From positions 682,001-746,000 of the forward strand of contig JABYQU010000006.1 in NCBI GenBank assembly GCA_022264855.1: a stretch of DNA of 64,000 bases, read 5' to 3'. Made by a program: the position numbers and the translations under genes. This document shows positions 12,265-53,398 of the stretch, piece after piece. Position 1 is the stretch's first letter. Each line of letters starts with the position of its first letter. The notes beneath the pieces were generated by a model. It ran no database searches. It saw only the letters and a list, made by a program, of their open reading frames with translations, and was not told the DNA's origin. This DNA comes from Lenzites betulinus (Eukaryota; Basidiomycota; Agaricomycetes; Polyporales; Polyporaceae).

Positions 12265-12572
12265 TGTTGTATTCCAGCTACGAGTATGATACCCGTACTT
12301 ATGTTTGATACTTACTTTTGTTTCATTTTGTATTCAAAGCGTCTCTGCCCGTAGTAGAGCTTAGATGCCGATCAGACACTTTCGCATCCGTCGTTAGCGC
12401 TCACCTCATCGTTCTTATCCCAAACGCTGAGGTGAGTATCCGCTGTCACTCACACATCCTGTCATACTCATGTATAGTAGCTCCCGCCCCTCTTTTAGGT
12501 AGCTACTAATATATCATTGTTCTTATCCCAAACGCTGAGCTCCCGCCCCTCTTTTAGTTCATAACCCCCACA
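12265..12572 (+). repeat. 5' LTR of element B
   Basis: 308 bp, TG...CA. It holds a hairpin with arms GCTCACCTCA and TGAGGTGAGT and a second pair of near-repeats (TTCTTATCCCAAACGCTGAG twice). Compared with the 3' LTR many CG dinucleotides are TG or CA here (for example TTTTGTTTCATTTTG against TTTCGCTTCGTTTCG). Confidence 0.9.
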
Positions 12573-12583
12573 GGTTATGAGCC
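12573..12583 (+). other. Primer-binding site of element B, overlapping the first ATG
   Basis: GGTTATGAGCC directly follows the 5' LTR. It is the same initiator-tRNA anticodon-loop complement as in element A, and here the match continues with CTGC. The ATG at 12577, inside this site, is the first codon of the long Gag frame; a second ATG at 12592 (MSLSHS) could be the real start. Confidence 0.7.
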
Positions 12584-23290: not shown

Positions 23291-23515
23291 GGGATCGAGA
23301 GGGATGGGGACGTGAGGACGCGAGGACGTGAGGGCGGGAGGACGCGAGGACGTGAGGGCGGGAGGACGCGAGGACGTGAGGGCGGGAGGACGCGAGGATA
23401 CGAGGGTGCGAGGACGTGAGGGTGCGAGAACGTGAGGGTGCAAGGGCGCGAGGACGCGAGGGCGCGAGGACGCGAGGACGCGAGGACGCGAGGACGCGAG
23501 GGCCCGAGGGCCCGA
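23291..23515. repeat. GAGGACGCGAGG minisatellite
   Basis: About 225 bp built from imperfect repeats of GAGGACGYGAGG and GTGAGGGYG units, purine-rich on the plus strand. A minus-strand frame of 102 codons runs through it (repeated VLASSRPH), which is a by-product of the repeat. Confidence 0.8.
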
Positions 23516-23632
23516 GGAGCATAAGGCTCGACAAACAGCGGCGGGAATGCATTTCAGATGCTGGACTTCATTGGATAGTACACATCGCGGGGCACAGCAC
23601 TTTCTTCACTACAACGTACATGAAAACACCTT

Positions 23633-31410: not shown

Positions 31411-31454
31411 ACCGTACATCGTTAGCTGCCTGCGCTAGGATCTCGTACGTATTA

Positions 31455-31720
31455 CTGTACCATTTCACTCAATTCGACAGCCCCTGTGACAGGTGACACC
31501 GTCCGCTCAGAAAAAAATTCGTCAATTCGACCATATGGCCGTGACATGGGGCGAAATTTCGACAGATTTTAGCTTGCGCGGCAGCGTGGCGCTCCGAAGC
31601 GCCCATGCAGCCCCAGGAGCGATCCGGCAAATGTCTTCGTGACCGGTGACGGGCACCAAAAATTCGGCAATTTGGACCCCATGTTATGCGTGATCTGACG
31701 AATTGAGTGAAATGGTACAG
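31455..31720. mobile_element. MITE with long inverted ends and TA duplication
   Basis: 266 bp. The left end reads CTGTACCATTTCACTCAA and the right end is its exact reverse complement; the inverted arms extend to about 26 bp with one mismatch (TTCGACAG against TTCGTCAG). TA flanks both sides (31453-31454 and 31721-31722). There is no coding capacity. TA duplication and short inverted ends are typical of Tc1/mariner-type non-autonomous elements. Confidence 0.8.
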
Positions 31721-31730
31721 TAGAATAGTA

Positions 31731-31789: not shown

Positions 31790-32318
31790 CACCTAACCCT
31801 CCCACGGATCGGGCCTGACTAGCCCGGGTGATCTGATTGATGTACGCGGTCGTAAATGCCCCGTTTCTGCGATCGCGCCTACTTCCCAATAATTCCACTG
31901 ATTTCCTGGCGCTTTCCCCTGTAGGTCCATCCCATCAGCGCCGACGTTGCCGCCATCACTGCGCTAGACCGCGTTCCCACCTCTCGTCATTTTCCCACTG
32001 CTTTCCGCGCCTCTACGCCGCCCTCCCGCCCGGCGTAGCGTAACACGTGTTGGATTCCCGCCCCCCGACGTGCGCCCCTTTCCCTTTTCGTCTTATCAGC
32101 CCGCACCTCTTATCTGACGTGTTATCTCCATCTCCAGATTATCTCATATCTTCTCCCTTCCAAATCAGGCTGTTCCCCCGCGCTTCCCGGCTTGTCCCGC
32201 GCCTGTCCGGCCTGCCGCCTCCTGCCGTCCCCCGCCTCCCGGGCCTTGCCGCCCGCCCAGCGCTCCCGAGCCCTCCCAATCAGGTAGCCCCACCGACACC
32301 TCACTCCGCCTTCCCTCT
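31790..32318 (+). repeat. Left terminal inverted repeat of the KDZ element
   Basis: 529 bp, inverted copy at 41522-42050. C- and T-rich on this strand with blocks such as CCGCCTCCTGCCGTCCCCCG and TCCATCTCCAGATTATCTC that are conserved in both copies. Confidence 0.9.
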
Positions 32319-32552
32319 CCTCTCGTGGTTACTGGCCCCCCTGCGCTACTATATTGTACTGCAGAATATGTAGTAAGTACGTAGTGTACACGTATCAACG
32401 GCAACGTGCCCTGTCTAACGGCGACCGAGCTACAGGGCCATTACCGAGGCATAACTCCGCTCGCCTATTTCGTAGCGATGGCGCAGTCATTATATCTTCA
32501 ACTTCCACCACCATGTACTCCGCTGACACGACCCCGCCCCCTGCCGCTTTCC

Positions 32553-34394
32553 ATGGCTCCCCCTGCTGACACTGCGTCGAATGGTGTCTCTCTCGCGAAC
32601 CTCCATCTGAACGATCATGGTCTCCGCAATCTACGCCTATTCCTCGGTCGGGACGACATTTATCGTCGATATCAGGACCGTTTCGACGCCGCCGACCTAG
32701 CGTGGTTCGTCGCTGGAATGCACAAGGACAATGATCACCAGGTTTTCCCCAACACGTTCCATCCGGCCTGGAAGACGGCGTTTTTGGTCGACGCGCCGAG
32801 TCCCGAGGAGGCCAAGAAGAAAAGAAACGAACTGAGGAGTAAGCTCAAGGCTCTCCTCTTCGATACGGTAAGTATCCGTTGAGTAATCTCTTCGTATGCG
32901 CATTCTAATCGTATGTAGGCCACTGCACTTGACCGCACGCAGGGCGGATGCACCCTCGTCCTCCACGTCGACGGTCCCATCGCGCCCGGGCAGCGTGCCG
33001 AGCTCGAGAACGTCAAAGTAGACGTCGTCCTTCCCCCCCACGTCCTCGCGGAGGTCCCGCATATCGAACGCGCCATCGCCCAAATCGTTCAACAATACGT
33101 CGAGTCGCTCGGCATCTTCGCCGTCCAACGATGGCGCATGGCCTTTCTCAACACCGGCCGCACGCTGAACACCCCCATCTCAGACGAGCGTCGTACGCAC
33201 TCCGTGGTCCGCCCGTTCATGCCCAGTCCCACCCCCTCGCAGAACCACTACATTTGTTACGGTCGCCCCGTTGGGCAGCTGCAAGAGATGCTCGACGCCG
33301 TCGGGCATCCCAAACCCGCCCGTCCCAGCCCGGCCGCCGCCAATCCGTCCCCAGAGGTCGTCGAGGCGGCGAATGCCCAGATTCACAACAACGCCGGCGA
33401 CGACAGCGACGACAACGGTCCCGAGCATGGCCAGAAAGAGGCTATGCTCGAGAACTACATCGCAGACCTTGAAGAGGAGCTACAAATCAAGGACAAGTGC
33501 ATCGACGACAGGGACGAGAACCTCAAGCAGATGGGCCAGACCATCGAAGAGAAGGCGACGATCATCGAGGAGAAGGACGCCATCATCGAGGCAAAGGAGC
33601 GCGAGCTCGTTGCTCGCGACCTCGTCCTCGCCGACCGAGCTCGCCAGCTCGCTGAGATGTCCCATCTCCTCCACGCCCGCGAGGAGGACCTCAAGCAGTT
33701 GCGTGCACGGCTCCTCAGCCCCACACCTGGTATGTTATCAATGTGCTGCTGTATTGACGACGTCGCTCACTGTCATACAGTAGTCTTTGCCAACGCCCGG
33801 ACGTTTGAGCCAGCGGCCGACGTCCCGTTCGACGTCCCTCCCACCCCGACGCCTAGTGTCATGACGCCGCCTCGCGCCCGCGTCGGCACCCCTGTACCCC
33901 TGCGCTCCCATGGGAGTGGGATGATCCTGTCGCCCTCCGCTCTACGCGGCGGCAACGCCGTCTTCCGCTCGGCTGTCGACAGCGACGATGACAGGTCGAC
34001 TCATTCTTCCTCAATGCTGTCACACTCTGATTGGTCCGGGACCATCTCGCCGACCCCCGTGGGCGCGGTCAGCTCCTCCGAATGGGAAATGCCGTCTTAC
34101 CCGCTCGTCCAGACCCGTCCGCGTGTCATTCCGCAGGCCACGACAACGCCTGCCGGCCCCGCGCCTCTCGGCCGGCTCACCAGGCTGACACGCTTCAGCG
34201 CCTTGGGGGAGCACACCGCCAACGCCGTCCGTGATCTCGGGCTTCTCCCTGCTCTTCATCGTCACCTCAATGCCCTCGTGGAGAACGTCCCTGACAATGA
34301 CTGGGTGTCCACCCTCGTTAACCATCATGGTCTGAGTGACTCTGCTGCAGAGAAAATCAGGGATGCTATGTTTAGGGACATTCCGACCATGTAG
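32553..34394 (+). CDS. KDZ-element cargo 1: coiled-coil protein of unknown function
   Basis: Three exons (32553-32877, 32919-33729, 33781-34394) joined in frame. The N-terminal about 220 residues look like a folded domain (LHLNDHGLRNLRLFLGRDDI, FHPAWKTAFLVD, CTLVLHVDGPIAPGQRAEL, RAIAQIVQQYVESLGIFAVQ). An acidic linker leads to a clear coiled coil at about residues 290-380 (ENYIADLEEELQIKDKCIDD, EEKDAIIEAKERELVARDLV, LHAREEDLKQLRARLL). The C-terminal third is serine/proline-rich and ends in a helical segment (DLGLLPALHRHLNALVENVP, LSDSAAEKIRDAMF). It is the first gene inside the left inverted repeat and has no damage. The ATG at 32553 (MAPPADTASNG) is preferred over two upstream in-frame ATGs because the sequence before it is not protein-like. 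The coiled coil could mediate transposase or DNA-complex assembly, which is speculation. Confidence 0.75.
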
Positions 34395-34636
34395 CCTTGA
34401 AAGTATTTCAGTTTCGCTTGTAGGGCTGGCTATCCTGTTGTCATGCTGTCCCGCTTATTTTGCTGCTGTCATGTACTGCGCTATCATTTTGAAATATCAT
34501 TGCTGAGACATCTCCAGAACTAGCCGATGACTGCTTTATAGAAGCTCTAGTCCCCATCGAACCTTCTTGCCTCCCTTTTTCATCCACTTTCTTCTCGCAG
34601 CGCAGCCTCGTTTTCTCCTCGTGCTGATCAGCTGTC

Positions 34637-35996
34637 ATGTCGATCACTTATGGGTCACCGGCAGACATTGTTGCAAGGCCTATCGTTCCAAGGGAACGTC
34701 GTACGGGCCCTGTGCTGACCCACGAGCGGAGACTGGAGCTCGCTGTAGAACGTCGTGTTAAGGCCGACCAGATCGAGGAGGAGCTCGTGAAATGGTATGA
34801 GGCTACCGTCGAGTTGTCGAAGGACCTGAGTCGGCGCTTCCCGTCGAAGAAGCCAGAAGCATATCTTTATCAAATGCTCTCAGGGGCGACGAAGAATGGG
34901 AAGCCGCGTGAGCCGAGCGCGTACAACGCTTGGCTCCATCGTCTTGCGAAAGAAGGCGGTGAGGCTACGTGTTTTATTCCATACTTATCTCTTACTCACA
35001 CTTTTCAGACGGGGTAAATATCAACAATATCGACGAGGAGGAGCTCGAAGAGTACCGCAACCTTACTAGTGAGCAGAAGGCGGCCCTTAAAGCCGACTTA
35101 ATAGAAGAACGGAAGTCCCGGCAATTCGGCATACGGATCTCGCAGCGTGGGAGGACGCAAGACGTCAATCACGTCTGCGAGAAGATAGAAGACTTAGTAA
35201 GTCAAGAGAGCGGATTGGTCGAGCGGAGTTTTGCTGACTTCGGACTCAGCTTCAAGGTCTCCAACATCGCGTTGGCGTCGAAGCCTTCTTCTGCGTCGTC
35301 CGCAACACCGCCGATTATCCCCTGAAGCCTCGCTGGTGGTTCAGCTCGAACACGCTGGACGAGTTCCTGCGGGGCAATGTTCGCAGGTTCGAACCGGAGC
35401 GGATTGGCGTGATGGCGGAGGCGTTCGCTATCGCGGGGTGTGACTACTTCAGTACGTGTCCGTCTTCATGATAACCAACGCGCTCTGCTAACTACTTCCA
35501 CACTTCACAGACCAGCTGAAGAACACTGAGCAGAAGGCCGCTTTCTTGAAGGGCGAGATCCGTGACTTGGTGCACGAGGCCCTTGGTGAGTCGTATGCAC
35601 AACGCTTCGGGACGTTACTCATTATTTGCAGTCTTGATTACGGGCGATCCGGCCGCAACCATGAGCTACACGCAATTCACCCGCGATATAGAGCTTCAGC
35701 GCGGCGTCACTATCGATGGCTGGACTCACCATCAATTCTGCGCGCCGTCGAAGATGAGCAGCGCTCTCGGCCCCCTCAAGACGCTGCACGAGGCCCTGAA
35801 GAATAAGACCTGCAAGTTCGTCCGACTCTCCCCCTCGCAGTGCGACGAAATCCGGAAGCAGGTCGCCGAGGAGCAGGCAACCGGCGCGAATGCTCGCAAG
35901 CCCCGTAACGACGCCGGTAAGAAGCGCAAGCCCAAGAATTCGGGGTCTGGCAGTGCTCCCAAGAAGACTCGTGTCGACGAGAACACCGCCGAGTAG
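34637..35996 (+). CDS. KDZ-element cargo 2: basic protein, HMG-box-like N-terminus
   Basis: Five exons (34637-34958, 35009-35196, 35250-35451, 35511-35585, 35632-35996) join in frame. After MSITYGSPADIV comes a helix-rich region of about 110 residues: ELVKWYEATVELSKDLSRRF, then GKPREPSAYNAWLHRLAKEG, then LEEYRNLTSEQKAALKADLI. The order PSAYN-x-W, helix, ...LT.EQK is reminiscent of an HMG box (DNA-bending domain). A middle domain follows (VEAFFCVVRNTADYPLKPRW, FEPERIGVMAEAFAIAGCDY) and then TIDGWTHHQFCAPSKMSSAL. The last 40 residues are lysine-rich (KPRNDAGKKRKPKN), like a nuclear localisation or DNA-binding tail. KDZ transposons are reported to encode a divergent HMG-domain protein, which fits. 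No search was done, so the HMG call is inference from pattern. Confidence 0.7.
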
Positions 35997-37304
35997 TTTC
36001 GCCCATCGTCGGACAGCAGAGGGTCGACAAGCCGCCGCCATACACGAAGCTGCGACACCTCGTCATCCCTCGTCGTCCCTCGTCATCCCTCGTCATCCCT
36101 CGTCGCCCCTCGTCGCCTGCTCGTCGCCCCTCGTCGCCCTTCGTCGCCTGCCCATTGCCCGTTGCCCATCGCCCCTCGTTTACCCGTCGCCCCTCGTCGC
36201 TTGCCCGTCGCCGGCCCCCTTCGCCCGTCGCCTCCAGTGTGTGCGCCATCTAAGAGGACCATACAGGACATTTCGGCCTCTGCGCGCATGGTCATACACG
36301 CACCACGCTCGTACTGCGCGCGAGGCCATGCGCAACGCTTTGATCCATGTCGTCTCGCACTTGCCTCTTGCCTCTCGCCTACGTCTCCATTACTGCATTT
36401 CTCGTGGCTACGCCGTCCGCAAGTTCGTTCGTTAACGTCCTTATAATATTTACTGTATGTTTTGCTTCTGTAGTATGTCTTGCTCGCTGTCGCTGTCCGC
36501 TGTGCGCCGCCGCTGTCGTTCCTTCATGTTCTCGCTGTCATATATACCTTACCCGTCGTATAGCTCTCGTATAGCTCTCTCGTACCCTCGCCGCTATCCC
36601 CTCCGTACCTTGCATATTTGGGAAGATGCTCGTGCTATAGTCATCGTAATCAGTTGTCCGTCGTACATGCTGGCTGTCGCTATGTGATCTCCAATTGAAC
36701 ATCCATGTTGCATCGAAGTGCTGCAGGCTTGGCAAGCCCGACACCGACAGTAGCAGACATTCAAGTGTTCTGCCTAGAGCAGTACTTGCTGTAGTAGCAG
36801 TGAAGCCATCCGAAGGCATTGCGTCACTCCGGGTCTCAAGTATCTTACCACCGTTCATCCGTCGTGGACTGGGACAGTAAGAGATTAATGGATTCCTGTG
36901 ATACAGAAGCCCCGCACGAAAGATGACTTTGTAGTTGACGCGTTGACGGCGCGTTCACCACAGGACCTCCAACAAGCAAACCAACTTTCAAGTTGATACT
37001 CTGGACACCAGATGGCACTCTACGAGCTCATGTATATTTCGTCACACCCGAAGACCATTCCGTACTTGCACTGATAGACCTTTACACAAGCAATCCGTAG
37101 TAGCTATAGCGTACACTTCTCAAATGACATGTTCACACTTGCACCAAGGCGGCATCGCCGTCGCAAGGTCCTGTAGTTCCACATACTTCAGCCTCATCGA
37201 AGTACTCGCCGGGGTCTCCACAGCTATACTGCACACATATGAAACTGACCATGTATATACTACCGATGAGGTTGCGATTATCGTACAGCGTAGGGAGGCA
37301 ATAA
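35997..37304. other. Spacer between convergent KDZ-element genes
   Basis: About 1.3 kb. Positions 36057-36235 are an imperfect repeat of CGTCATCCCT/CGTCGCCCCT-type 10- and 9-mers. The rest holds no credible gene. Both neighbours end toward this region, so it should contain two polyadenylation sites. Confidence 0.6.
36057..36235 (+). repeat. CGTCRYCCCT microsatellite-like tract
   Basis: About 180 bp of degenerate tandem CTCGTCATCCCTCGTCGCCC-like units just downstream of cargo gene 2. Confidence 0.75.
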
Positions 37305-40300
37305 CTACGTATCGTCCGCACTACTAGCTAAGCTGTCGAAGAACTTGACCAGTCGCCCAGAATTCGTCACACCGCCGGCTCCCGGAATACCTCCAACTTC
37401 TTCCAAGTCGAAATCGTCAGCATACAAGCCTCCGGGGTTTCGAAGCAGCTGCACACCCGGGATCACAGAGACACCGGGCTGAACCGCAACCTCTACCCCT
37501 GCGGAAACAGTCCTCGAGTGACGTGAGACGTTGTCCGGGATCGCGGCCGTGTCGCCCGCGGTCGTGGCGCGGCCGTCTGCGACGTCTACTACCGCGACGG
37601 AGGAGCCCGTATGAGAGGCCGTACAGGCAGCAGGCTCACTCGAGAGGGGGATACACGCTGTCGCGACGGCTCCGGGTGCGTTAGAGGCCGTAGGGGCCGC
37701 TGGCTCGCGAGAGGGCCCTCCAGAGGGTGACGATATCGCTGGAGACTTGTCTACTCCCGAAAGTGTCGCCCACGACGGCAGCGCAGCCATGTCCAGCAAG
37801 GACTTGTCGCGCCCTATGCGATAGGCGTACTTGAGTTGTCCAGAGAAGCCCGAGAGCTGCGAAGTTTTGAACAGCCACCCTACAACCCTCTCATTGACGA
37901 CGGCGAGGTATTGCTGGCGGGCGACAAGCTCAGACGCAAGCGTCGAGTTCATCGCGCGGGCGGTGCACACAGCGGCGTGATAGTCCATATGTTCATCGAC
38001 CATGTACGAAAAAAGGCGGGCGATCTCCAGGTTCAGACGCGAAATCTCCTCGCGTGCACGCTTGACGTTGTAGTAAGTATTCATGGCGTCGCGATGCGTG
38101 CGCTGCGCCCAGGGCTTTTCGCGGATGTCTTGCCGCGTCTCGCGCAACAAATCGAACTCGCCCAACGAAACGAGTTCCATGACGTCGCCCAGCGACAGTT
38201 CGGGCTTCGGAGGCTTGAGCTCGGACGCGTACTTGTTGTACTTCGCGAGCGCCTTCCGGATAGCCTCAGCACGAGTCTTGAGTGCCTTACCAATCTTGTC
38301 GCGGAGCTTATAGCCTGTTGCAAAGCTTCAGTGCGGCTCGCGTGCATGATATGGTAAAATAATGCTTACCAACACCATTGAGGCCGAGCTTGTTCAGTTC
38401 GAACAACCTTTGAACCACGAGGCGCTCCAAGTTGTCGAGGGCCAGCCGGTACTTCCTGCGATCGAGCTCCAGGCTGGCCTCCTTGTACTCGGCGCTGTTC
38501 GGAAGCCAGGGGGATTCGAGGTCGAGCGCGTCGGCGAGGCGGTTGGCCTCTTCCTGGGCTTGTGCCACGCGCGCGGGCGCGGCTGTATACTCGTGACGAA
38601 TGCGTCGTATCTCTTTTTCGGTGATCCCTTCCCTGATGATTAGCTCGTCGAGCTTCTTGTACATGTCGACCGCGACAGTGTCCTTTCGTCTGCGAGCATG
38701 TCAGCGAGGCGGAATGTGGAGTAGATAAGACGCATACCCGGCTTCTTCGAGCTTCCTCAAGGCCCGGACGTACTCGAACTTGAGCGCGTACTCGGCGGGC
38801 TCCGACTTCAAACCGAGGAGATACGCGCGTTCCTCCCGTAGGTAACGCTCGAAGTCTTCTGCGCCGATCTTCAGCTCATGCATGTACACGGCCAGCGCGC
38901 GCTCACCGTCTTCAATAATCTGCAGCGCCTGACGATAGTTGTTGAAGATGAAGCGACCTATCACGCATAAGTAAACGGTTTAATAACATATATCACAACT
39001 TACCGGATTCAGCGTGCTTCAACCCGTTCCAGTATTTGACGTGGCCTTCAATAGCTTGATGCCGATGGAAGTCAGAGGCCAATCGCGTCCCGGACGCCAG
39101 GGAGTTCGACGACGAGAAGAAACGTTCACATCCCTCGAAATCCTCCTTGCCGACACCGTCACGGTACATTGGGTGCCAGTCCAGTTGGCAGGCGCGGTTA
39201 TGGCTATGTCCGTGGAACGCCGGGACAATGGGCATGATGACGCCCTTGGCACGAGGCCCCAGCGAGCTCCTGTCGAGGATCTTTGCGAACTCACACCCAA
39301 TGTCGTAGCCCAAGACAATCTTGTAGTCGCTCCCATAGACGTCGAGAAGCTTCTTTACGATCGCGAGGGGATACTTCATCCTGCAATATGTGAGCTCCCA
39401 TGTTACTAGTAGACGGCGGCGCACTCACAATTCACCACTGCGGATCATGTCGCACAATACCAGTACCTGGCCATGCCGACACAGGGAGGCGAAGATCCCG
39501 GTTGCCTTGAAGAGCGTGAACATTTTTTTACGCGCCTCGGGCCCCGCGTTCCGCCACCGCTCAGCGCATAGCGATGTTGCCTCGGAGGGTTCATCGACCT
39601 GATCCGTGACGGTGTCCTCGTTGATCCACTGGGCTTCCTCGAGGTCGCCGTCGATGTCGTCGTCTGACACGTCACCGTCGCCTGCCTTCCGTTGTGGCCT
39701 TCGTGTCTGAGATGCGGGGTCTTTGTTGCGTGCATTCGAAGTTGTTGCTTTTGCGGCGGCGGACGTCGACGACGAAGGATCTGATGGGACGGCAGGGCCA
39801 GACCCCACAGTGGGAACCTTTGAGGATGCTGCACGTCTCTGATGTATATAATCAGCATTGAAACGAAGGTGACGCGCAAGGACGTACCTGCTGGGCATCG
39901 CGAACCTCATCCTTGAAGCGATCGACTTCTTCGTTGCTAATGTAGAGGTCGGTCCGAAGAGTCCTTCGGTCGGTGTACCGTTCGCCGCTACGGAACGAGT
40001 CGTCGACCAGCTTGAGCGAGGAGTTACCATCCATGGTGGCGAGAAGAGTGGGCGGCGACGGTTCACCTTCAAGAACATACAGACATGGGGGGCACGCATG
40101 ACGCATGCGCCACTCCGGCTGGTCGCGGCCTAACGAGGCACTGACGCGTACTTCAACTTGGTGGAGGAGGTCGAGATACACGTCGAAGCAGCCTGAGAAT
40201 TGTTCAGCCATCTTTGGGATGAACGTTCGCTGATGGACGGTCAGTATGACGTGGCATATTAAGCGGGAATGACTTACCAGATGCAAGGCGCAGACACCTT

Positions 40301-41234
40301 GGCAGAATGCTTGCACGCTCAGTCGTGGGCACACAGCATGGAGTTGACGGTAGCATTCCAGAACTTTCAAAGAGATCGCCTGGGTGGGCGCGACGGGAGA
40401 GACACCGAGATATCCGCCTCGGAGCAATGTGACGTTAGGCAGTTCGGACATAGTCGAAGGCGAGAAGGAAGCGAGGTGATATTCTGATATAATAGATTAG
40501 CGATATGTGCGCGGTGTCGTGACAGCACGCAAAACCACTTACGGAACATCTCGACGACGTTGATACTCCAGCTGCTGGGACATGACACAGGATCGGGAGA
40601 GAAGTCGGGGGCGGAAGGGGGCTCAAGGGGATCGGGAGCACTCGACGGGGCGGTATGGGGGGGCGTCGAGGAGAGGTTGCTCCCCGTAGCGCTTGACGTG
40701 TCCTTCCAGGCGAGATAGGCGTCCGTCAAGTGGGGTAGTTGCATCGCCCACTCTGTGTTCCGCAAATCCGTACGATCGCGGCGAGTTCTCTTGTCCCGCC
40801 TTATCCTAAATCCGTGCATGAGATGTGTGCAACATTGCAAGTGAATAGACTTGAGACATACCATTGTTCTTCGAATATCTCGCGACAAAGCTGATCCTCA
40901 CCGCCCTCATGGCTGGCCAGGACACCCTCGTCGCCCAACGGGATGGGATATAGTTGTATACCTTCCATGATGTCTGGGTCGACCGCCATGAGGTCTTCGC
41001 GTTCTTCATAGTTCAGGCCTGAGAATTACATGAGTATCTTACAGTTCAGAAGGAGGTAGGTGTGCAGCGGTACATACCAGCGACTCGTTCGCGAAACTTG
41101 GCATACGCCTGTGCTTGTCGAGCAGCGCCATCCCGGAGGTTTTGACATTTGGTGATAGTCTTCCGCGCGAAACCACGCCCATATCGTAGGTTGACAGAGC
41201 TAGAGACGGAGGACTTACCCTTATACCCGCTCAT
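37305..41234 (-). CDS. KDZ-family transposase, intact
   Basis: Ten exons (41234-41078, 41018-40862, 40805-40543, 40483-40278, 40229-39888, 39838-39429, 39380-39004, 38957-38738, 38689-38370, 38314-37305) total 3462 nt, 1153 aa, with every intron GT-AG and 46-60 nt long. Family signatures in order: LLRGGYLGVSPVAPTQAIS (about 215-235), CFDVYLDLLHQ and a zinc pair ACPPC (307-310), a presumed first catalytic aspartate in ATMDGNSSLK (about 328), CAERWRNAG and GIFASLCRHGQVLVLCDM with IRSGEL (about 450-510), YDIGCEF (second acidic residue, about 538), VPAFHGHSHNRACQLDWHP and EDFEGCERFFSSSNSLA (presumed third acidic residue, about 597). KDZ transposases have an RNase H-like catalytic fold with extra zinc-binding motifs. 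The C-terminal 150 residues are disordered. No stop, frameshift or damaged motif was found, so the enzyme may be active. It would cut at the 529-bp inverted repeats that flank it. Confidence 0.88.
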
Positions 41235-41521
41235 TGTGTTCGAACATCGTGCATTGAGGGTGAGGGGGACTCTGCTGGCAGGGATGTGCTGGCAGGAGGA
41301 GGAGGAGAAGGGGCGGGCGTTTAGGTCACAGTGTTGAACACGACGCGTGAGAACAAGTCTCACACGTGCGGAAGCCGAGCGCGCGCCGCGGGCAGTGCTG
41401 AGCAACCTACCATTTTGGGACACCCTCCTACTCTCCCAACCCGGCTGGTGGTTTATACACCTATGTACATTAATGAAGGATCGAACTACACTATTTATGA
41501 GGTCTATACACTATTGAAGGC
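41235..41521. promoter_or_regulatory. Upstream region of the KDZ transposase
   Basis: About 290 bp between the transposase ATG and the right inverted repeat. It includes an inverted pair around 41345-41376 (GACGCGTGAGA and TCTCACACGTG). The transcription start must lie here or in the inverted repeat; no TATA box stands out. Confidence 0.35.
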
Positions 41522-42050
41522 AGAGGGAAGGCGGAGTGAGGTGTCGGTGGGGCTACCTGATTGGGAGGGTTCGGGAGCGCTGGGCGGGCGGCAAGGCCCG
41601 GGCGGCGGGGGACGGCAGGAGGCGGCAGGCCGGACAGGCGCGGGACAAGCCGGGAAGCGCGGGGGAACAGCCTGATTTGGAAGGGAGAAGATATGAGATA
41701 ATCTGGAGATGGAGATAACAAGTCAGATAAGAGGCGCGGGCTGATAAGACGGAAAGGGAAAAGGGCGCACGTCGGGAGGGCGGGACCCGCCACGTGTTAC
41801 GCTACGCTGGGCGGGAGGGCGGGATATTAACGCGGAGCGCGGTGGGAATATGACGAAATGTGGGAACGCGGTCTAGGGCGGTGATGGCGGCAGTATCGGC
41901 GCTAATGGAATGGACCTACAAGGGAAGGCGCCAGGAAATCAGTGGAATTATTGGGAAGTAGGCGCGATCGCAGAAACGGGGCATTTACGACCGCGTACAT
42001 CAATCAGATCACCCGGGCTAGTCAGGCCCGATCCGTGGGAGGGTTAGGTG
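41522..42050 (-). repeat. Right terminal inverted repeat of the KDZ element
   Basis: 529 bp, reverse complement of 31790-32318 with scattered substitutions. It ends GGTTAGGTG at 42050 and is followed at once by satellite sequence (GTGTTGGCTATGC). Confidence 0.9.
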
Positions 42051-45000
42051 GTGTTGGCTATGCTAATGCTGTAAACCAACGTTGTGCGTGCTGATATTGC
42101 ATGTCAGCACCAGGGTGTGAGTCGCTGCCGCCGCCAGATCAGCCACAGTGGTTGTGAGCACCAGGCAGAGGAGGCGTCGCAGTCAACAGCAAGCACACTG
42201 ATGCCATTAACCAATGCCAACTATGCTAATGCTGTAAATCAACGTTGTGCGTGCTGATATTGCATGTCAGCACCAGGGTGTGAGTCGCTGCCGCCGCCAG
42301 ATCAGCCACAGTGGTTGTGAGCACCAGGCAGAGGAGGCGTCGCAGTCAACGGCAAGCACACTGATGCCATTAACCAATGCCAACTATGCTAATGCTGTAA
42401 ATCAACGTTGTGCGTGCTGATATTGCATGTCAGCACCAGGGTGTGAGTCGCTGCCGCCGCCAGATCAGCCACAGTGGTTGTGAGCACCAGGCAGAGGAGG
42501 CGTCGCAGTCAACGGCAAGCACACTGATGCCATTAACCAATGCCAACTATGCTAATGCTGTAAATCAATGTTGTGCACACCAGGGCCATTCGCCAGTGTT
42601 GGCTATGCTAATGCTGTAAATCAACGTTGTGCGTGCTGATATTGCATGTCAGCACCAGGGTGTGAGTCGCTGCCGCCGCCAGATCAGCCACAGTGGTTGT
42701 GAGCACCAGGCAGAGGAGGCGTCGCAGTCAACGGCAAGCACACTGATGCCATTAACCAATGCCAACTATGCTAATGCTGTAAATCAACGTTGTGCGTGCT
42801 GATATTGCATGTCAGCACCAGGGTGTGAGTCGCTGCCGCCGCCAGATCAGCCACAGTGGTTGTGAGCACCAGGCAGAGGAGGCGTCGCAGTCAACGGCAA
42901 GCACACTGATGCCATTAACCAATGCCAACTATGCTAATGCTGTAAATCAATGTTGTGCACACCAGGGCCATTCGCCAGTGTTGGCTATGCTAATGCTGTA
43001 AATCAACGTTGTGCGTGCTGATATTGCATGTCAGCACCAGGGTGTGAGTCGCTGCCGCCGCCAGATCAGCCACAGTGGTTGTGAGCACCAGGCAGAGGAG
43101 GCGTCGCAGTCAACGGCAAGCACACTGATGCCATTAACCAATGCCAACTATGCTAATGCTGTAAATCAACGTTGTGCGTGCTGATATTGCATGTCAGCAC
43201 CAGGGTGTGAGTCGCTGCCGCCGCCAGATCAGCCACAGTGGTTGTGAGCACCAGGCAGAGGAGGCGTCGCAGTCAACGGCAAGCACACTGATGCCATTAA
43301 CCAATGCCAACTATGCTAATGCTGTAAATCAACGTTGTGCGTGCTGATATTGCATGTCAGCACCAGGGTGTGAGTCGCTGCCGCCGCCAGATCAGCCACA
43401 GTGGTTGTGAGCACCAGGCAGAGGAGGCGTCGCAGTCAACGGCGAGCACACTGATGCCATTAACCAATGCCAACTATGCTAATGCTGTAAATCAATGTTG
43501 TGCACACCAGGGCCATTCGCCAGTGTTGGCTATGCTAATGATGTAAACCAACGTTGTGCGTGCTGATATTGCATGTCAGCACCAGGGTGTGAGTCGCTGC
43601 CACCGCCAGATCAGCCACAGTGGTTGTGAGCACCAGGCAGAGGAGGCGTCGCAGTCAACGGCAAGCACACTGATGCCATTAACCAATGCCAACTATGCTA
43701 ATGCTGTAAATCAATGTTGTGCACACCAGGGCCATTCGCCAGTGTTGGCTATGCTAATGCTGTAAATCAACGTTGTGCGTGCTGATATTGCATGTCAGCA
43801 CCAGGGTGTGAGTCGCTGCCGCCGCCAGATCAGCCACAGTGGTTGTGAGCACCAGGCAGAGGAGGCGTCGCAGTCAACGGCAAGCACACTGATGCCATTA
43901 ACCAATGCCAACTATGCTAATGCTGTAAATCAACGTTGTGCGTGCTGATATTGCATGTCAGCACCAGGGTGTGAGTCGCTGCCGCCGCCAGATCAGCCAC
44001 AGTGGTTGTGAGCACCAGGCAGAGGAGGCGTCGCAGTCAACGGCAAGCACACTGATGCCATTAACCAATGCCAACTATGCTAATGCTGTAAATCAACGTT
44101 GTGCGTGCTGATATTGCATGTCAGCACCAGGGTGTGAGTCGCTGCCGCCGCCAGATCAGCCACAGTGGTTGTGAGCACCAGGCAGAGGAGGCGTCGCAGT
44201 CAACGGCAAGCACACTGATGCCATTAACCAATGCCAACTATGCTAATGCTGTAAATCAATGTTGTGCACACCAGGGCCATTCGCCAGTGTTGGCTATGCT
44301 AATGCTGTAAACCAACGTTGTGCGTGCTGATATTGCATGTCAGCACCAGGGTGTGAGTCGCTGCCGCCGCCAGATCAGCCACAGTGGTTGTGAGCACCAG
44401 GCAGAGGAGGCGTCGCAGTCAACAGCAAGCACACTGATGCCATTAACCAATGCCAACTATGCTAATGCTGTAAATCAACGTTGTGCGTGCTGATATTGCA
44501 TGTCAGCACCAGGGTGTGAGTCGCTGCCGCCGCCAGATCAGCCACAGTGGTTGTGAGCACCAGGCAGAGGAGGCGTCGCAGTCAACGGCAAGCACACTGA
44601 TGCCATTAACCAATGCCAACTATGCTAATGCTGTAAATCAACGTTGTGCGTGCTGATATTGCATGTCAGCACCAGGGTGTGAGTCGCTGCCGCCGCCAGA
44701 TCAGCCACAGTGGTTGTGAGCACCAGGCAGAGGAGGCGTCGCAGTCAACGGCGAGCACACTGATGCCATTAACCAATGCCAACTATGCTAATGCTGTAAA
44801 TCAATGTTGTGCACACCAGGGCCATTCGCCAGTGTTGGCTATGCTAATGCTGTAAATCAACGTTGTGCGTGCTGATATTGCATGTCAGCACCAGGGTGTG
44901 AGTCGCTGCCGCCGCCAGATCAGCCACAGTGGTTGTGAGCACCAGGCAGAGGAGGCGTCGCAGTCAACGGCAAGCACACTGATGCCATTAACCAATGCCA

Positions 45001-48000
45001 ACTATGCTAATGCTGTAAATCAATGTTGTGCACACCAGGGCCATTCGCCAGTGTTGGCTATGCTAATGCTGTAAACCAACGTTGTGCGTGCTGATATTGC
45101 ATGTCAGCACCAGGGTGTGAGTCGCTGCCGCCGCCAGATCAGCCACAGTGGTTGTGAGCACCAGGCAGAGGAGGCGTCGCAGTCAACAGCAAGCACACTG
45201 ATGCCATTAACCAATGCCAACTATGCTAATGCTGTAAATCAACGTTGTGCGTGCTGATATTGCATGTCAGCACCAGGGTGTGAGTCGCTGCCGCCGCCAG
45301 ATCAGCCACAGTGGTTGTGAGCACCAGGCAGAGGAGGCGTCGCAGTCAACGGCAAGCACACTGATGCCATTAACCAATGCCAACTATGCTAATGCTGTAA
45401 ATCAACGTTGTGCGTGCTGATATTGCATGTCAGCACCAGGGTGTGAGTCGCTGCCGCCGCCAGATCAGCCACAGTGGTTGTGAGCACCAGGCAGAGGAGG
45501 CGTCGCAGTCAACGGCGAGCACACTGATGCCATTAACCAATGCCAACTATGCTAATGCTGTAAATCAATGTTGTGCACACCAGGGCCATTCGCCAGTGTT
45601 GGCTATGCTAATGATGTAAACCAACGTTGTGCGTGCTGATATTGCATGTCAGCACCAGGGTGTGAGTCGCTGCCACCGCCAGATCAGCCACAGTGGTTGT
45701 GAGCACCAGGCAGAGGAGGCGTCGCAGTCAACGGCAAGCACACTGATGCCATTAACCAATGCCAACTATGCTAATGCTGTAAATCAATGTTGTGCACACC
45801 AGGGCCATTCGCCAGTGTTGGCTATGCTAATGCTGTAAACCAACGTTGTGCGTGCTGATATTGCATGTCAGCACCAGGGTGTGAGTCGCTGCCGCCGCCA
45901 GATCAGCCACAGTGGTTGTGAGCACCAGGCAGAGGAGGCGTCGCAGTCAACAGCAAGCACACTGATGCCATTAACCAATGCCAACTATGCTAATGCTGTA
46001 AATCAACGTTGTGCGTGCTGATATTGCATGTCAGCACCAGGGTGTGAGTCGCTGCCGCCGCCAGATCAGCCACAGTGGTTGTGAGCACCAGGCAGAGGAG
46101 GCGTCGCAGTCAACGGCAAGCACACTGATGCCATTAACCAATGCCAACTATGCTAATGCTGTAAATCAACGTTGTGCGTGCTGATATTGCATGTCAGCAC
46201 CAGGGTGTGAGTCGCTGCCGCCGCCAGATCAGCCACAGTGGTTGTGAGCACCAGGCAGAGGAGGCGTCGCAGTCAACGGCAAGCACACTGATGCCATTAA
46301 CCAATGCCAACTATGCTAATGCTGTAAATCAATGTTGTGCACACCAGGGCCATTCGCCAGTGTTGGCTATGCTAATGCTGTAAATCAACGTTGTGCGTGC
46401 TGATATTGCATGTCAGCACCAGGGTGTGAGTCGCTGCCGCCGCCAGATCAGCCACAGTGGTTGTGAGCACCAGGCAGAGGAGGCGTCGCAGTCAACGGCA
46501 AGCACACTGATGCCATTAACCAATGCCAACTATGCTAATGCTGTAAATCAACGTTGTGCGTGCTGATATTGCATGTCAGCACCAGGGTGTGAGTCGCTGC
46601 CGCCGCCAGATCAGCCACAGTGGTTGTGAGCACCAGGCAGAGGAGGCGTCGCAGTCAACGGCAAGCACACTGATGCCATTAACCAATGCCAACTATGCTA
46701 ATGCTGTAAATCAATGTTGTGCACACCAGGGCCATTCGCCAGTGTTGGCTATGCTAATGCTGTAAATCAACGTTGTGCGTGCTGATATTGCATGTCAGCA
46801 CCAGGGTGTGAGTCGCTGCCGCCGCCAGATCAGCCACAGTGGTTGTGAGCACCAGGCAGAGGAGGCGTCGCAGTCAACGGCAAGCACACTGATGCCATTA
46901 ACCAATGCCAACTATGCTAATGCTGTAAATCAACGTTGTGCGTGCTGATATTGCATGTCAGCACCAGGGTGTGAGTCGCTGCCGCCGCCAGATCAGCCAC
47001 AGTGGTTGTGAGCACCAGGCAGAGGAGGCGTCGCAGTCAACGGCAAGCACACTGATGCCATTAACCAATGCCAACTATGCTAATGCTGTAAATCAACGTT
47101 GTGCGTGCTGATATTGCATGTCAGCACCAGGGTGTGAGTCGCTGCCGCCGCCAGATCAGCCACAGTGGTTGTGAGCACCAGGCAGAGGAGGCGTCGCAGT
47201 CAACGGCAAGCACACTGATGCCATTAACCAATGCCAACTATGCTAATGCTGTAAATCAATGTTGTGCACACCAGGGCCATTCGCCAGTGTTGGCTATGCT
47301 AATGCTGTAAACCAACGTTGTGCGTGCTGATATTGCATGTCAGCACCAGGGTGTGAGTCGCTGCCGCCGCCAGATCAGCCACAGTGGTTGTGAGCACCAG
47401 GCAGAGGAGGCGTCGCAGTCAACGGCAAGCACACTGATGCCATTAACCAATGCCAACTATGCTAATGCTGTAAATCAACGTTGTGCGTGCTGATATTGCA
47501 TGTCAGCACCAGGGTGTGAGTCGCTGCCGCCGCCAGATCAGCCACAGTGGTTGTGAGCACCAGGCAGAGGAGGCGTCGCAGTCAACGGCAAGCACACTGA
47601 TGCCATTAACCAATGCCAACTATGCTAATGCTGTAAATCAACGTTGTGCGTGCTGATATTGCATGTCAGCACCAGGGTGTGAGTCGCTGCCGCCGCCAGA
47701 TCAGCCACAGTGGTTGTGAGCACCAGGCAGAGGAGGCGTCGCAGTCAACGGCGAGCACACTGATGCCATTAACCAATGCCAACTATGCTAATGCTGTAAA
47801 TCAATGTTGTGCACACCAGGGCCATTCGCCAGTGTTGGCTATGCTAATGCTGTAAACCAACGTTGTGCGTGCTGATATTGCATGTCAGCACCAGGGTGTG
47901 AGTCGCTGCCGCCGCCAGATCAGCCACAGTGGTTGTGAGCACCAGGCAGAGGAGGCGTCGCAGTCAACGGCAAGCACACTGATGCCATTAACCAATGCCA

Positions 48001-51000
48001 ACTATGCTAATGCTGTAAATCAACGTTGTGCGTGCTGATATTGCATGTCAGCACCAGGGTGTGAGTCGCTGCCGCCGCCAGATCAGCCACAGTGGTTGTG
48101 AGCACCAGGCAGAGGAGGCGTCGCAGTCAACGGCAAGCACACTGATGCCATTAACCAATGCCAACTATGCTAATGCTGTAAATCAATGTTGTGCACACCA
48201 GGGCCATTCGCCAGTGTTGGCTATGCTAATGCTGTAAATCAACGTTGTGCGTGCTGATATTGCATGTCAGCACCAGGGTGTGAGTCGCTGCCGCCGCCAG
48301 ATCAGCCACAGTGGTTGTGAGCACCAGGCAGAGGAGGCGTCGCAGTCAACGGCAAGCACACTGATGCCATTAACCAATGCCAACTATGCTAATGCTGTAA
48401 ATCAACGTTGTGCGTGCTGATATTGCATGTCAGCACCAGGGTGTGAGTCGCTGCCGCCGCCAGATCAGCCACAGTGGTTGTGAGCACCAGGCAGAGGAGG
48501 CGTCGCAGTCAACGGCAAGCACACTGATGCCATTAACCAATGCCAACTATGCTAATGCTGTAAATCAATGTTGTGCACACCAGGGCCATTCGCCAGTGTT
48601 GGCTATGCTAATGCTGTAAATCAACGTTGTGCGTGCTGATATTGCATGTCAGCACCAGGGTGTGAGTCGCTGCCGCCGCCAGATCAGCCACAGTGGTTGT
48701 GAGCACCAGGCAGAGGAGGCGTCGCAGTCAACGGCAAGCACACTGATGCCATTAACCAATGCCAACTATGCTAATGCTGTAAATCAACGTTGTGCGTGCT
48801 GATATTGCATGTCAGCACCAGGGTGTGAGTCGCTGCCGCCGCCAGATCAGCCACAGTGGTTGTGAGCACCAGGCAGAGGAGGCGTCGCAGTCAACGGCAA
48901 GCACACTGATGCCATTAACCAATGCCAACTATGCTAATGCTGTAAATCAACGTTGTGCGTGCTGATATTGCATGTCAGCACCAGGGTGTGAGTCGCTGCC
49001 GCCGCCAGATCAGCCACAGTGGTTGTGAGCACCAGGCAGAGGAGGCGTCGCAGTCAACGGCGAGCACACTGATGCCATTAACCAATGCCAACTATGCTAA
49101 TGCTGTAAATCAATGTTGTGCACACCAGGGCCATTCGCCAGTGTTGGCTATGCTAATGCTGTAAACCAACGTTGTGCGTGCTGATATTGCATGTCAGCAC
49201 CAGGGTGTGAGTCGCTGCCACCGCCAGATCAGCCACAGTGGTTGTGAGCACCAGGCAGAGGAGGCGTCGCAGTCAACGGCAAGCACACTGATGCCATTAA
49301 CCAATGCCAACTATGCTAATGCTGTAAATCAATGTTGTGCACACCAGGGCCATTCGCCAGTGTTGGCTATGCTAATGCTGTAAACCAACGTTGTGCGTGC
49401 TGATATTGCATGTCAGCACCAGGGTGTGAGTCGCTGCCGCCGCCAGATCAGCCACAGTGGTTGTGAGCACCAGGCAGAGGAGGCGTCGCAGTCAACAGCA
49501 AGCACACTGATGCCATTAACCAATGCCAACTATGCTAATGCTGTAAATCAACGTTGTGCGTGCTGATATTGCATGTCAGCACCAGGGTGTGAGTCGCTGC
49601 CGCCGCCAGATCAGCCACAGTGGTTGTGAGCACCAGGCAGAGGAGGCGTCGCAGTCAACGGCAAGCACACTGATGCCATTAACCAATGCCAACTATGCTA
49701 ATGCTGTAAATCAACGTTGTGCGTGCTGATATTGCATGTCAGCACCAGGGTGTGAGTCGCTGCCGCCGCCAGATCAGCCACAGTGGTTGTGAGCACCAGG
49801 CAGAGGAGGCGTCGCAGTCAACGGCGAGCACACTGATGCCATTAACCAATGCCAACTATGCTAATGCTGTAAATCAATGTTGTGCACACCAGGGCCATTC
49901 GCCAGTGTTGGCTATGCTAATGATGTAAACCAACGTTGTGCGTGCTGATATTGCATGTCAGCACCAGGGTGTGAGTCGCTGCCACCGCCAGATCAGCCAC
50001 AGTGGTTGTGAGCACCAGGCAGAGGAGGCGTCGCAGTCAACGGCAAGCACACTGATGCCATTAACCAATGCCAACTATGCTAATGCTGTAAATCAATGTT
50101 GTGCACACCAGGGCCATTCGCCAGTGTTGGCTATGCTAATGCTGTAAACCAACGTTGTGCGTGCTGATATTGCATGTCAGCACCAGGGTGTGAGTCGCTG
50201 CCGCCGCCAGATCAGCCACAGTGGTTGTGAGCACCAGGCAGAGGAGGCGTCGCAGTCAACAGCAAGCACACTGATGCCATTAACCAATGCCAACTATGCT
50301 AATGCTGTAAATCAACGTTGTGCGTGCTGATATTGCATGTCAGCACCAGGGTGTGAGTCGCTGCCGCCGCCAGATCAGCCACAGTGGTTGTGAGCACCAG
50401 GCAGAGGAGGCGTCGCAGTCAACGGCAAGCACACTGATGCCATTAACCAATGCCAACTATGCTAATGCTGTAAATCAACGTTGTGCGTGCTGATATTGCA
50501 TGTCAGCACCAGGGTGTGAGTCGCTGCCGCCGCCAGATCAGCCACAGTGGTTGTGAGCACCAGGCAGAGGAGGGTCGCAGTCAACGGCAAGCACACTGAT
50601 GCCATTAACCAATGCCAACTATGCTAATGCTGTAAATCAATGTTGTGCACACCAGGGCCATTCGCCAGTGTTGGCTATGCTAATGCTGTAAATCAACGTT
50701 GTGCGTCTGATATTGCATGTCAGCACCAGGTGTGAGTCGCTGCCGCCGCCAGATCAGCCACAGTGGTTGTGAGCACCAGGCAGAGGAGGCGTCGCAGTCA
50801 ACGGCAAGCACACTGATGCCATTAACCAATGCCAACTATGCTAATGCTGTAAATCAACGTTGTGCGTGCTGATATTGCATGTCAGCACCAGGGTGTGAGT
50901 CGCTGCCGCCGCCAGATCAGCCACAGTGGTTGTGAGCACCAGGCAGAGGAGGCGTCGCAGTCAACGGCAAGCACACTGATGCCATTAACCAATGCCAACT

Positions 51001-53068
51001 ATGCTAATGCTGTAAATCAATGTTGTGCACACCAGGGCCATTCGCCAGTGTTGGCTATGCTAATGCTGTAAATCAACGTTGTGCGTGCTGATATTGCATG
51101 TCAGCACCAGGGTGTGAGTCGCTGCCGCCGCCAGATCAGCCACAGTGGTTGTGAGCACCAGGCAGAGGAGGCGTCGCAGTCAACGGCAAGCACACTGATG
51201 CCATTAACCAATGCCAACTATGCTAATGCTGTAAATCAATGTTGTGCACACCAGGGCCATTCGCCAGTTTGGCTATGCTAATGCTGTAAACCAACGTTGT
51301 GCGTGCTGATATTGCATGTCAGCACCAGGGTGTGAGTCGCTGCCGCCGCCAGATCAGCCACAGTGGTTGTGAGCACCAGGCAGAGGAGGCGTCGCAGTCA
51401 ACAGCAAGCACACTGATGCCATTAACCAATGCCAACTATGCTAATGCTGTAAATCAACGTTGTGTGTGCTGATATTGCATGTCAGCACCAGGGTGTGAGT
51501 CGCTTCCGCCGCCAGATCAGCCACAGTGGTTGTGAGCACCAGGCAGAGGAGGCGTCGCAGTCAACGGCAAGCACACTGATGCCATTAACCAATGCCAACT
51601 ATGCTAATGCTGTAAATCAATGTTGTGCACACCAGGGCCATTCGCCAGTGTTGGCTATGCTAATGCTGTAAATCAACGTTGTGCGTGCTGATATTGCATG
51701 TCAGCACCAGGGTGTGAGTCGCTGCCGCCGCCAGATCAGCCACAGTGGTTGTGAGCACCAGGCAGAGGAGGCGTCGCAGTCAACGGCAAGCACACTGATG
51801 CCATTAACCAATGCCAACTATGCTAATGCTGTAAATCAACGTTGTGCGTGCTGATATTGCATGTCAGCACCAGGGTGTGAGTCGCTGCCGCCGCCAGATC
51901 AGCCACAGTGGTTGTGAGCACCAGGCAGAGGAGGCGTCGCAGTCAACGGCAAGCACACTGATGCCATTAACCAATGCCAACTATGCTAATGCTGTAAATC
52001 AATGTTGTGCACACCAGGGCCATTCGCCAGTGTTGGCTATGCTAATGCTGTAAATCAACGTTGTGCGTGCTGATATTGCATGTCAGCACCAGGGTGTGAG
52101 TCGCTGCCGCCGCCAGATCAGCCACAGTGGTTGTGAGCACCAGGCAGAGGAGGCGTCGCAGTCAACGGCAAGCACACTGATGCCATTAACCAATGCCAAC
52201 TATGCTAATGCTGTAAATCAATGTTGTGCACACCAGGGCCATTCGCCAGTGTTGGCTATGCTAATGCTGTAAACCAACGTTGTGCGTGCTGATATTGCAT
52301 GTCAGCACCAGGGTGTGAGTCGCTGCCGCCGCCAGATCAGCCACAGTGGTTGTGAGCACCAGGCAGAGGAGGCGTCGCAGTCAACAGCAAGCACACTGAT
52401 GCCATTAACCAATGCCAACTATGCTAATGCTGTAAATCAACGTTGTGCGTGCTGATATTGCATGTCAGCACCAGGGTGTGAGTCGCTGCCGCCGCCAGAT
52501 CAGCCACAGTGGTTGTGAGCACCAGGCAGAGGAGGCGTCGCAGTCAACGGCAAGCACACTGATGCCATTAACCAATGCCAACTATGCTAATGCTGTAAAT
52601 CAACGTTGTGCGTGCTGATATTGCATGTCAGCACCAGGGTGTGAGTCGCTGCCGCCGCCAGATCAGCCACAGTGGTTGTGAGCACCAGGCAGAGGAGGCG
52701 TCGCAGTCAACGGCAAGCACACTGATGCCATTAACCAATGCCAACTATGCTAATGCTGTAAATCAACGTTGTGCGTGCTGATATTGCATGTCAGCACCAG
52801 GGTGTGAGTCGCTGCCGCCGCCAGATCAGCCACAGTGGTTGTGAGCACCAGGCAGAGGAGGCGTCGCAGTCAACGGCAAGCACACTGATGCCATTAACCA
52901 ATGCCAACTATGCTAATGCTGTAAATCAATGTTGTGCACACCAGGGCCATTCACCAGTGTTGGCTATGCTAATGCTGTAAACCAACGTTGTGTGTGCTGA
53001 TATTGCATGTCAGCACCAGGGTGTGAGTCGCTGCTGCCGCCAGATCAGCCACAGTGGTTGTGAGCACC
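42051..53068. repeat. 11-kb satellite array: 163-bp monomer plus 56-bp derivative
   Basis: The array consists of 58 full copies of a 163-bp unit (A) and 26 copies of a 56-bp unit (B), ending in a partial A copy. B looks like A with an internal deletion and a changed middle: both begin TCAAYGTTGTGC and end GGCTATGCTAATGCTGTAA or a close variant. The number of A units before each B runs 3,2,3,1,3,3,1,3,1,3,2,3,3,2,2,3,1,3,1,3,2,1,2,2,1,4, giving periods of 219, 382, 545 and 708 bp. Copies are almost identical, with a few marker variants (CAACAGC/CAACGGC, GGCAAGC/GGCGAGC, GCCGCCGCC/GCCACCGCC, AATGCTGTAA/AATGATGTAA). Each A has an imperfect 21-bp dyad with arms TGCTGA and TCAGCA. A 69-codon frame repeats in every A-B pair but starts at GTG and is a by-product. 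Confidence 0.95.
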
Positions 53069-53398
53069 TTCCATGATACAAACAATTTCTCGTCACTCAA
53101 CACTACCCCTGCCAATTCCCTCATACTGGACTATGTTGTTGCCCGCCTCCTGAACAAGGAATCTTGCCAGACCCCTGCTGTGCCATTGTCATCCACCCAC
53201 ACCAAGAATGCACTTGTTGCTGCCGCCGCCTGCCTGCGCATCCCAATCTCAACGATCATGTGTTACCGCTTTGCCCACAAGGGGCATTTCCAGGTGAACT
53301 GCCCACTCGCACCCACCACCCCTGCTGTTGCCGCTGCCGCCGCTGCCTTTGCTGGTTCCGCACGCCTCATTGTCGAAGATGATGAGTGCCCCTTCTAG
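53069..53398 (+). pseudogene. C-terminal fragment of a copia-type Gag
   Basis: The frame reads from the last satellite unit into FHDTNNFSSLNTTPANSLIL, DYVVARLLNKES and, after an alanine-rich stretch, CYRFAHKGHFQVNCPLAP. That is a retroviral-type zinc knuckle with the second cysteine replaced by phenylalanine. DYVVARLLN followed by a knuckle is the usual end of copia Gag. The N-terminal half of Gag is missing and replaced by the array. It ends at a TAG at 53396-53398. Confidence 0.65.

What the first reader, a model, noticed from the sequence alone, without database searches (positions are those of the whole stretch)
31790..42050. Complete 10.3-kb KDZ transposon with 529-bp inverted repeats and an undamaged transposase
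The two inverted repeats have the same length (529 bp) and enclose three genes that all splice in frame by hand: a ten-exon KDZ transposase of 1153 aa and two cargo genes. KDZ elements are usually met as scattered transposase hits; a copy with both ends and all genes intact allows the ends, gene order and cargo to be defined. The gene set (transposase, coiled-coil protein, HMG-like protein, no TET/JBP) could be a distinct KDZ subtype. That last point is inference; the structure is read from the sequence.
Basis: partly seen in the sequence, partly recalled or inferred. Interest (0 to 1): 0.88.

Follow-up and report, generated by a model that had tools for sequence, protein, structure and literature searches.

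The report
Jumping gene with mismatched flanks
A 10.3-kb jumping gene of a known class (KDZ) in a wood-rotting bracket fungus carries its transposase and two helper genes without visible damage, but its two ends sit in unrelated DNA, so this copy is probably a recombinant rather than a clean insertion.

Summary
Window 31790-42050 is bounded by ~529-bp inverted repeats (93.6% identical; outer 123 bp identical) enclosing three intron-split genes without internal stops: a ten-exon, 1153-aa KDZ transposase (PF18758, 242.5 bits), a 579-aa protein A and a 383-aa HMG-like protein B. Host: Lenzites betulinus. The one other copy of the family (contig C16, ~73% identical DNA) has the same genes in the same order. 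dN/dS between the two is 0.11, 0.22 and 0.11, so A and B belong to the element. B-type genes also lie in the three other KDZ elements I opened here (two were picked for a weak B hit) and share contigs with KDZ transposases in other species.

"Complete" needs correcting: this copy has no target-site duplication. Its left end lies in a Copia-type LTR, its right end in an ~11-kb satellite array, both at the exact tip. It is best read as a recombinant or a product of aberrant transposition.

Unexpected: both copies sit at the same base of the same LTR hairpin, in the same orientation; the assembly has only three exact plus-strand matches to it. This suggests target preference.

KDZ elements with defined ends, accessory genes and observed transposition are published, so this is a new member of a known kind.

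The parts
31790..42050 (.). KDZ-superfamily transposon, 10,261 bp, tips CACCT...AGGTG
   Evidence: Inverted repeats and gene content
31790..32318 (+). Left terminal inverted repeat
41522..42050 (-). Right terminal inverted repeat
32553..34394 (+). Gene A, 579 aa, exons 32553-32867, 32919-33729, 33781-34394; no Pfam family over cut-off; heptad-like coiled-coil stretch by eye
   Evidence: P0017 100% identity; dN/dS 0.217 against C16
34637..35996 (+). Gene B, 383 aa, exons 34637-34958, 35009-35196, 35250-35451, 35511-35585, 35632-35996; HMG-like, probable DNA-binding accessory protein
   Evidence: P0001 100% identity; HMG box in 2 of 14 homologues; dN/dS 0.109-0.110 against C16
37305..41234 (-). 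KDZ transposase gene, 1153 aa, ten exons: 41234-41078, 41018-40862, 40805-40543, 40483-40278, 40229-39888, 39838-39429, 39380-39004, 38957-38738, 38689-38370, 38314-37305
   Evidence: PF18758 242.5 bits at residues 322-630; dN/dS 0.110 against C16
31294..31789 (+). Left flank: positions 1-231 of a 454-bp Copia-type LTR, interrupted by a MITE, ending in GCGGTCA at the transposon tip
42051..53066 (.). Right flank: ~11-kb tandem array of 163- and 56-bp units starting directly at the transposon tip (GTGTTGG); 85 unit starts

Best explanation
It is a KDZ-superfamily DNA transposon of a family with two members in this Lenzites betulinus assembly. The DDE-type transposase most likely acts at the CACCT...AGGTG tips of the long inverted repeats, cuts the element out and pastes it at a 7-bp staggered cut; A and B are most likely accessory factors of the same reaction, B as a DNA-binding protein. 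Shown: the ends, the three open genes, purifying selection on all three, the sibling's 7-bp target duplication and its empty site. Inferred: cut-and-paste, the roles of A and B, and whether this copy can still move. This copy is not a simple insertion: both tips are exact, but the left neighbour is a Copia-type LTR and the right neighbour an unrelated satellite array. It most likely arose by recombination between two insertions of the family, or by aberrant transposition that joined an element end to another site. The shared insertion point suggests that the family prefers an LTR hairpin.
For: TIRs; gene models; PF18758; 24 transposase homologues keep candidate D, D and E positions (which residues are catalytic is recalled); dN/dS 0.110, 0.217, 0.109 (B 0.110 with a corrected C16 model). 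Sibling: TSD GCGGTCA on both sides, empty site in its second LTR, LTRs 454 of 454 bp identical. Mismatched flanks of the window copy; the other 223 bp of the LTR have no match in the window. TIR mismatches of the window copy lie in a patch, while the sibling's TIRs show one mismatch and one gap in 495 columns. Same LTR base and orientation in both copies; three exact plus-strand hairpin sites in the assembly, two occupied.
Against: No second parent copy or reciprocal product is left: only four TIR ends exist in the assembly, so the recombination step is unseen. The target preference rests on two insertions; KDZ elements C1 and C72 use other targets (CCAACGTC, GGCGTGCG). No expression or activity data. 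CxC1, the cysteine cluster reported with KDZ transposases, is below cut-off (21.6 against 26.9 bits).
Confidence: 0.7

Rival explanations
1. A clean, complete autonomous insertion, whose target duplication has merely decayed.
For: Exact tips, all three genes open.
Against: The neighbours are different sequences from the first base: LTR on the left, array on the right; the left 7 bp are intact GCGGTCA. Decay would not replace the whole flank.
Confidence: 0.05
2. The element inserted in the LTR with a normal duplication; later the transposase cut only its right end and the break was joined to the array (one-ended event), with loss of the rest of the retroelement. No second copy is needed.
For: The right junction is at the exact tip, as expected for a transposase cut; the LTR remainder is absent from the window; no second parent copy exists.
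Against: GTGTTGG at the right junction is a normal stretch of the array unit, as expected for a regular insertion into the array; the patchy TIR divergence fits exchange between copies better.
Confidence: 0.3
3. The shared LTR position does not show targeting: one ancestral insertion was duplicated with its LTR flank, and the flank was later homogenised by gene conversion.
For: LTR flanks are 94-97% identical between the two loci.
Against: The elements are only ~73% identical with synonymous sites near saturation; sequence outside the LTR differs; the C16 retroelement has identical LTRs and is therefore young.
Confidence: 0.15
4. The right junction is an assembly error beside the tandem array.
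For: Long near-identical tandem arrays are a typical place of misjoins.
Against: The element itself is single-copy at DNA level (nearest relative ~73%), so it should not confuse an assembler; the junction is exactly at the tip. No reads were available.
Confidence: 0.1

Closest known systems
Cryptococcus neoformans KDZ1, KDZ2, KDZ3 (PMC12810828; passages read)
   Same: KDZ transposase, ~9-11 kb, long TIRs, target duplications; insertion observed
   Different: TIRs 139-241 bp, TSD 8 bp (KDZ1) or 4-8 bp; CxC1 domain reported there, weak here; genes like A and B not mentioned in the passages I read
Kyakuja of Laccaria and other Agaricomycotina (PMC12730594; abstract, section 3.2 and passages read)
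   Same: 7-bp TSD (seen here in the C16 sibling) and 5'-CA..TG-3' ends
   Different: The Kyakuja families described there have no TIRs and carry TET/JBP; here TIRs are ~529 bp and no TET/JBP was found
KDZ elements C1:720209-729357 and C72:11455-20596 in the same genome
   Same: CACCT...AGGTG tips, long TIRs (~340 bp), KDZ transposase, a B-type gene
   Different: 9.1 kb, 8-bp TSDs, long frames including the transposase all on one strand, transposase matches at 32-51% identity, other targets
Dada transposons (PMC3706591; search listing only)
   Same: Precedent for a DNA transposon with strict target choice in repeated sequence
   Different: Another superfamily, aimed at small RNA genes; analogy only

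Membership tests
KDZ superfamily | KDZ transposase core (PF18758) | tested here: met
   242.5 bits against a cut-off of 26.6, profile positions 2-217 of 217
KDZ superfamily | Conserved D, D, E catalytic positions | tested here: met
   Invariant or nearly invariant D and E positions in the core of 24 aligned homologues (D251, D284, E340/E343 in P0019 numbering). Assignment as catalytic is recalled, not tested
KDZ superfamily | Terminal inverted repeats | tested here: met
   ~529 bp, 93.6%; not all KDZ have them (PMC12730594)
KDZ superfamily | Target-site duplication of 7-8 bp | tested here: not met
   Not met by this copy (GCGGTCA against GTGTTGG); met by its sibling (7 bp, with empty site) and by C1 and C72 (8 bp). 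I file the family as KDZ on the transposase; this copy is filed as a rearranged member
KDZ superfamily | CxC cysteine cluster beside the core | tested here: inconclusive
   CxC1 21.6 bits, below the 26.9 cut-off
Kyakuja subgroup | 7-bp TSD and CA..TG ends | tested here: met
   Sibling TSD and tips
Kyakuja subgroup | No TIRs (as described for TET-carrying families) | tested here: not met
   Long TIRs
Kyakuja / Dileera / Zisupton subgroup | Place in a tree of named transposases | not tested
   No labelled reference sequences were at hand
HMG-box proteins (gene B) | HMG box by profile | tested here: inconclusive
MADS/MEF2 and GTF2I-repeat folds (gene B) | Structural match of model residues 148-214 (MEF2) and 239-328 (GTF2I) | tested here: inconclusive

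The most novel reading that the evidence does not exclude
A KDZ transposon family that homes into one hairpin of a Copia LTR, served by a conserved accessory DNA-binding protein (HMG-, MADS- and GTF2I-like parts) that travels with KDZ transposases in Polyporales and Agaricales: site-directed integration by a KDZ element, with a retroelement as safe harbour.
Probability: 0.3. Interest if true: 0.7.

Novelty: new member of a known kind. Interest (0 to 1): 0.42.

Why it matters
It gives a pair of related KDZ elements with exact ends, one of them with an empty site inside a young retroelement, and shows that a second gene (B) is kept under strong selection beside KDZ transposases. If the hairpin preference is real, it would be a KDZ element with a defined target, testable in laboratory yeast. 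It also warns that long inverted repeats and intact genes do not make an element a clean insertion.

Tried and rejected
Array search by DNA similarity could not be scored (too many letters); an exact pattern with one mismatch was used instead. The TET/JBP search found nothing, but none of its control genomes rang, so absence is weak. By eye, gene A seemed to have a C-terminal counterpart in the C1 and C66 elements; hhalign gave 0.1% probability and I dropped it. The protein search found A only in the two Lenzites copies, but scored only the 7993 candidates sharing most words. GTF2I by sequence: no Pfam hit in the C66 pieces at E up to 10. A PDB profile search of B gave E 0.052 at best. A short palindrome at the array junction (GCCA-GTGT-TGGC, by eye) gets no weight. 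TIR against plasmid records: no match, as expected for a fungal element. C66 element: 175-bp identical TIRs but no TSD found. My first C16 B model had one intron end that was not AG; a GT-AG model of 391 aa exists and gives dN/dS 0.110. The first dynamic-programming models fused A with B and split the transposase, and the second added false introns to the transposase; they were replaced. Literature: six searches; in their listings I saw no paper describing this family, gene B as a KDZ partner, or LTR-hairpin targeting. Only four papers were opened, in part; most of those listed were not read, and subscription papers are largely not held. The KDZ source paper (Iyer et al. 2014, recalled) is not held.
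Full report
What is there. The window is C65:682001-746000 of a 37.4-Mb genome in 108 contigs. Protein names and contig length identify the host as Lenzites betulinus, a polypore (placement recalled). Between 31790 and 42050 (10,261 bp) stands an element with ~529-bp inverted repeats, 93.6% identical over 534 columns. The outer 123 bp are identical, the mismatches lie in a patch, and the inner part is again nearly identical. The sibling's TIRs show one mismatch and one gap in 495 columns, so the patch in the window copy hints at conversion or recombination.

Genes. Exons were fitted by script with the sibling as guide, and the final models set by hand from those fits. A (579 aa) and B (383 aa) also have no internal stop. 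The C16 sibling has the same three genes in the same order and orientation, all open (A 577 aa; transposase 1188 aa; B 391 aa). dN/dS between the copies is 0.110 (transposase), 0.217 (A) and 0.109 (B; 0.110 with the corrected C16 model). Synonymous divergence is high (dS 2.13, 1.55, 1.30), so the ratios are approximate, but they are far below 1. All three genes have been kept by selection; A and B belong to the element.

Identity. The transposase matches PF18758 at 242.5 bits, while CxC1 is below cut-off; A and B have no Pfam family over cut-off. B has 16 homologues in the protein search. For 5 of these 14, a KDZ transposase hit of the same species lies on a contig of exactly the same length (searches compared); the distance between them is not known, except that in one Lentinus brumalis pair the locus tags are consecutive (OH76DRAFT_1488926 and 1488927). 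The transposase list was itself capped at 7993 scored candidates.

Other KDZ elements of this genome. The KDZ profile gave 77 exon-level matches, most of which I did not open. I opened three further elements: C1:720209-729357 (9149 bp, TIRs ~340 bp, TSD CCAACGTC), C72:11455-20596 (9142 bp, 99.8% identical to C1, TSD GGCGTGCG) and C66:198044-207107 (TIRs 175 bp, no TSD found). C1 and C72 were picked because they had a weak B hit; C66 was picked as a strong KDZ hit. Profile comparison of the B alignment with joint pieces of C1 and C66 gave 96.9% (E 1.7e-10) and 91.8% (E 7.2e-7), so B-type genes lie in these too. The C1/C72 pair shows recent KDZ movement in this host.

The flanks. Here the finding changes. 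The sibling lies at position 231 of the 454-bp LTR of a ~5.4-kb retroelement whose interior resembles the Copia-type frames at 12.5-16.9 kb of the window ('Copia' from motifs recalled, not from a profile search). It is flanked by GCGGTCA on both sides, and the second LTR shows the site uninterrupted. The two LTRs are identical over 454 bp: the retroelement is young and the KDZ insertion younger. The window copy has the same LTR on its left, ending at the same base with the same 7 bp. On its right, from the first base after the tip, stands an ~11-kb array of 163- and 56-bp units, whose 56-bp junction pattern occurs 25 times, all in this array. The other 223 bp of the LTR have no match in the window. 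Exact tips with unrelated neighbours point to recombination between two insertions, or to a transposase-made break joined elsewhere; a decayed duplication does not fit.

Same site twice. The LTR flanks are 94-97% identical, the elements only ~73%, and the sequence outside the LTRs differs. So two already diverged elements entered two separate retroelement copies at the same base and in the same orientation. The site is the 3' arm of a ten-base-pair stem with a three-base loop. GAGCTTGACCGCNNNGCGGTCA has three exact plus-strand matches: these two sites and the empty second LTR. Two more hits have one mismatch (one is the same palindrome on the other strand, one lies on C28, not examined); the other 17 have three mismatches. 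The total of 22 equals the background of the reversed pattern (21), so only the exact and one-mismatch hits mean anything. Six related LTRs with diverged stems (C47, C13, two on C1, two on C12) show the site unoccupied. With two insertions this is suggestive, not proof; C1 and C72 use other targets.

Known or new. KDZ transposons with ends, TSDs and observed insertion are published (PMC12810828, passages read). Accessory genes are said to be frequent in fungal KDZ (PMC12477816, passages read). KDZ TIR motifs were characterised in Marasmius oreades (PMC8290104, passages read). Kyakuja with 7-bp TSDs and CA..TG ends are in PMC12730594 (abstract, section 3.2, passages read). The element is a new member of a known kind. 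What I did not see in the listings of searches is gene B as a conserved KDZ partner, or repeated use of one LTR hairpin.

Noticed in passing
42051-53066: An ~11-kb tandem array of 163-bp units interspersed with 56-bp shorter units in a higher-order pattern (85 unit starts); its junction pattern is found nowhere else in the assembly.
   Followed up: partly
53066-53400: Directly after the array an open frame reads like a Copia gag with a degenerate CCHC-like knuckle (by eye); the array may have grown inside a retroelement.
   Followed up: no
12565-16945: A Ty1/Copia-like retroelement with gag-pol-type frames (by eye), related to the C16 retroelement that hosts the sibling transposon.
   Followed up: partly
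31453-31722: A ~270-bp MITE with 28-bp inverted ends, apparently duplicating TA, nested in the LTR left of the transposon; a 96% copy lies on C25.
   Followed up: partly
36058-36212: A 10-bp/31-bp minisatellite (CCTCGTCGCC) inside the transposon, between genes B and the transposase.
   Followed up: no
23308-23518: About 26 copies of an 8-bp repeat GGACGCGA.
   Followed up: no
L065/L066 (C1:720209-729357) and L068/L069 (C72:11455-20596): Two KDZ elements 99.8% identical with different 8-bp target duplications: a recently moving KDZ family in the same genome.
   Followed up: partly
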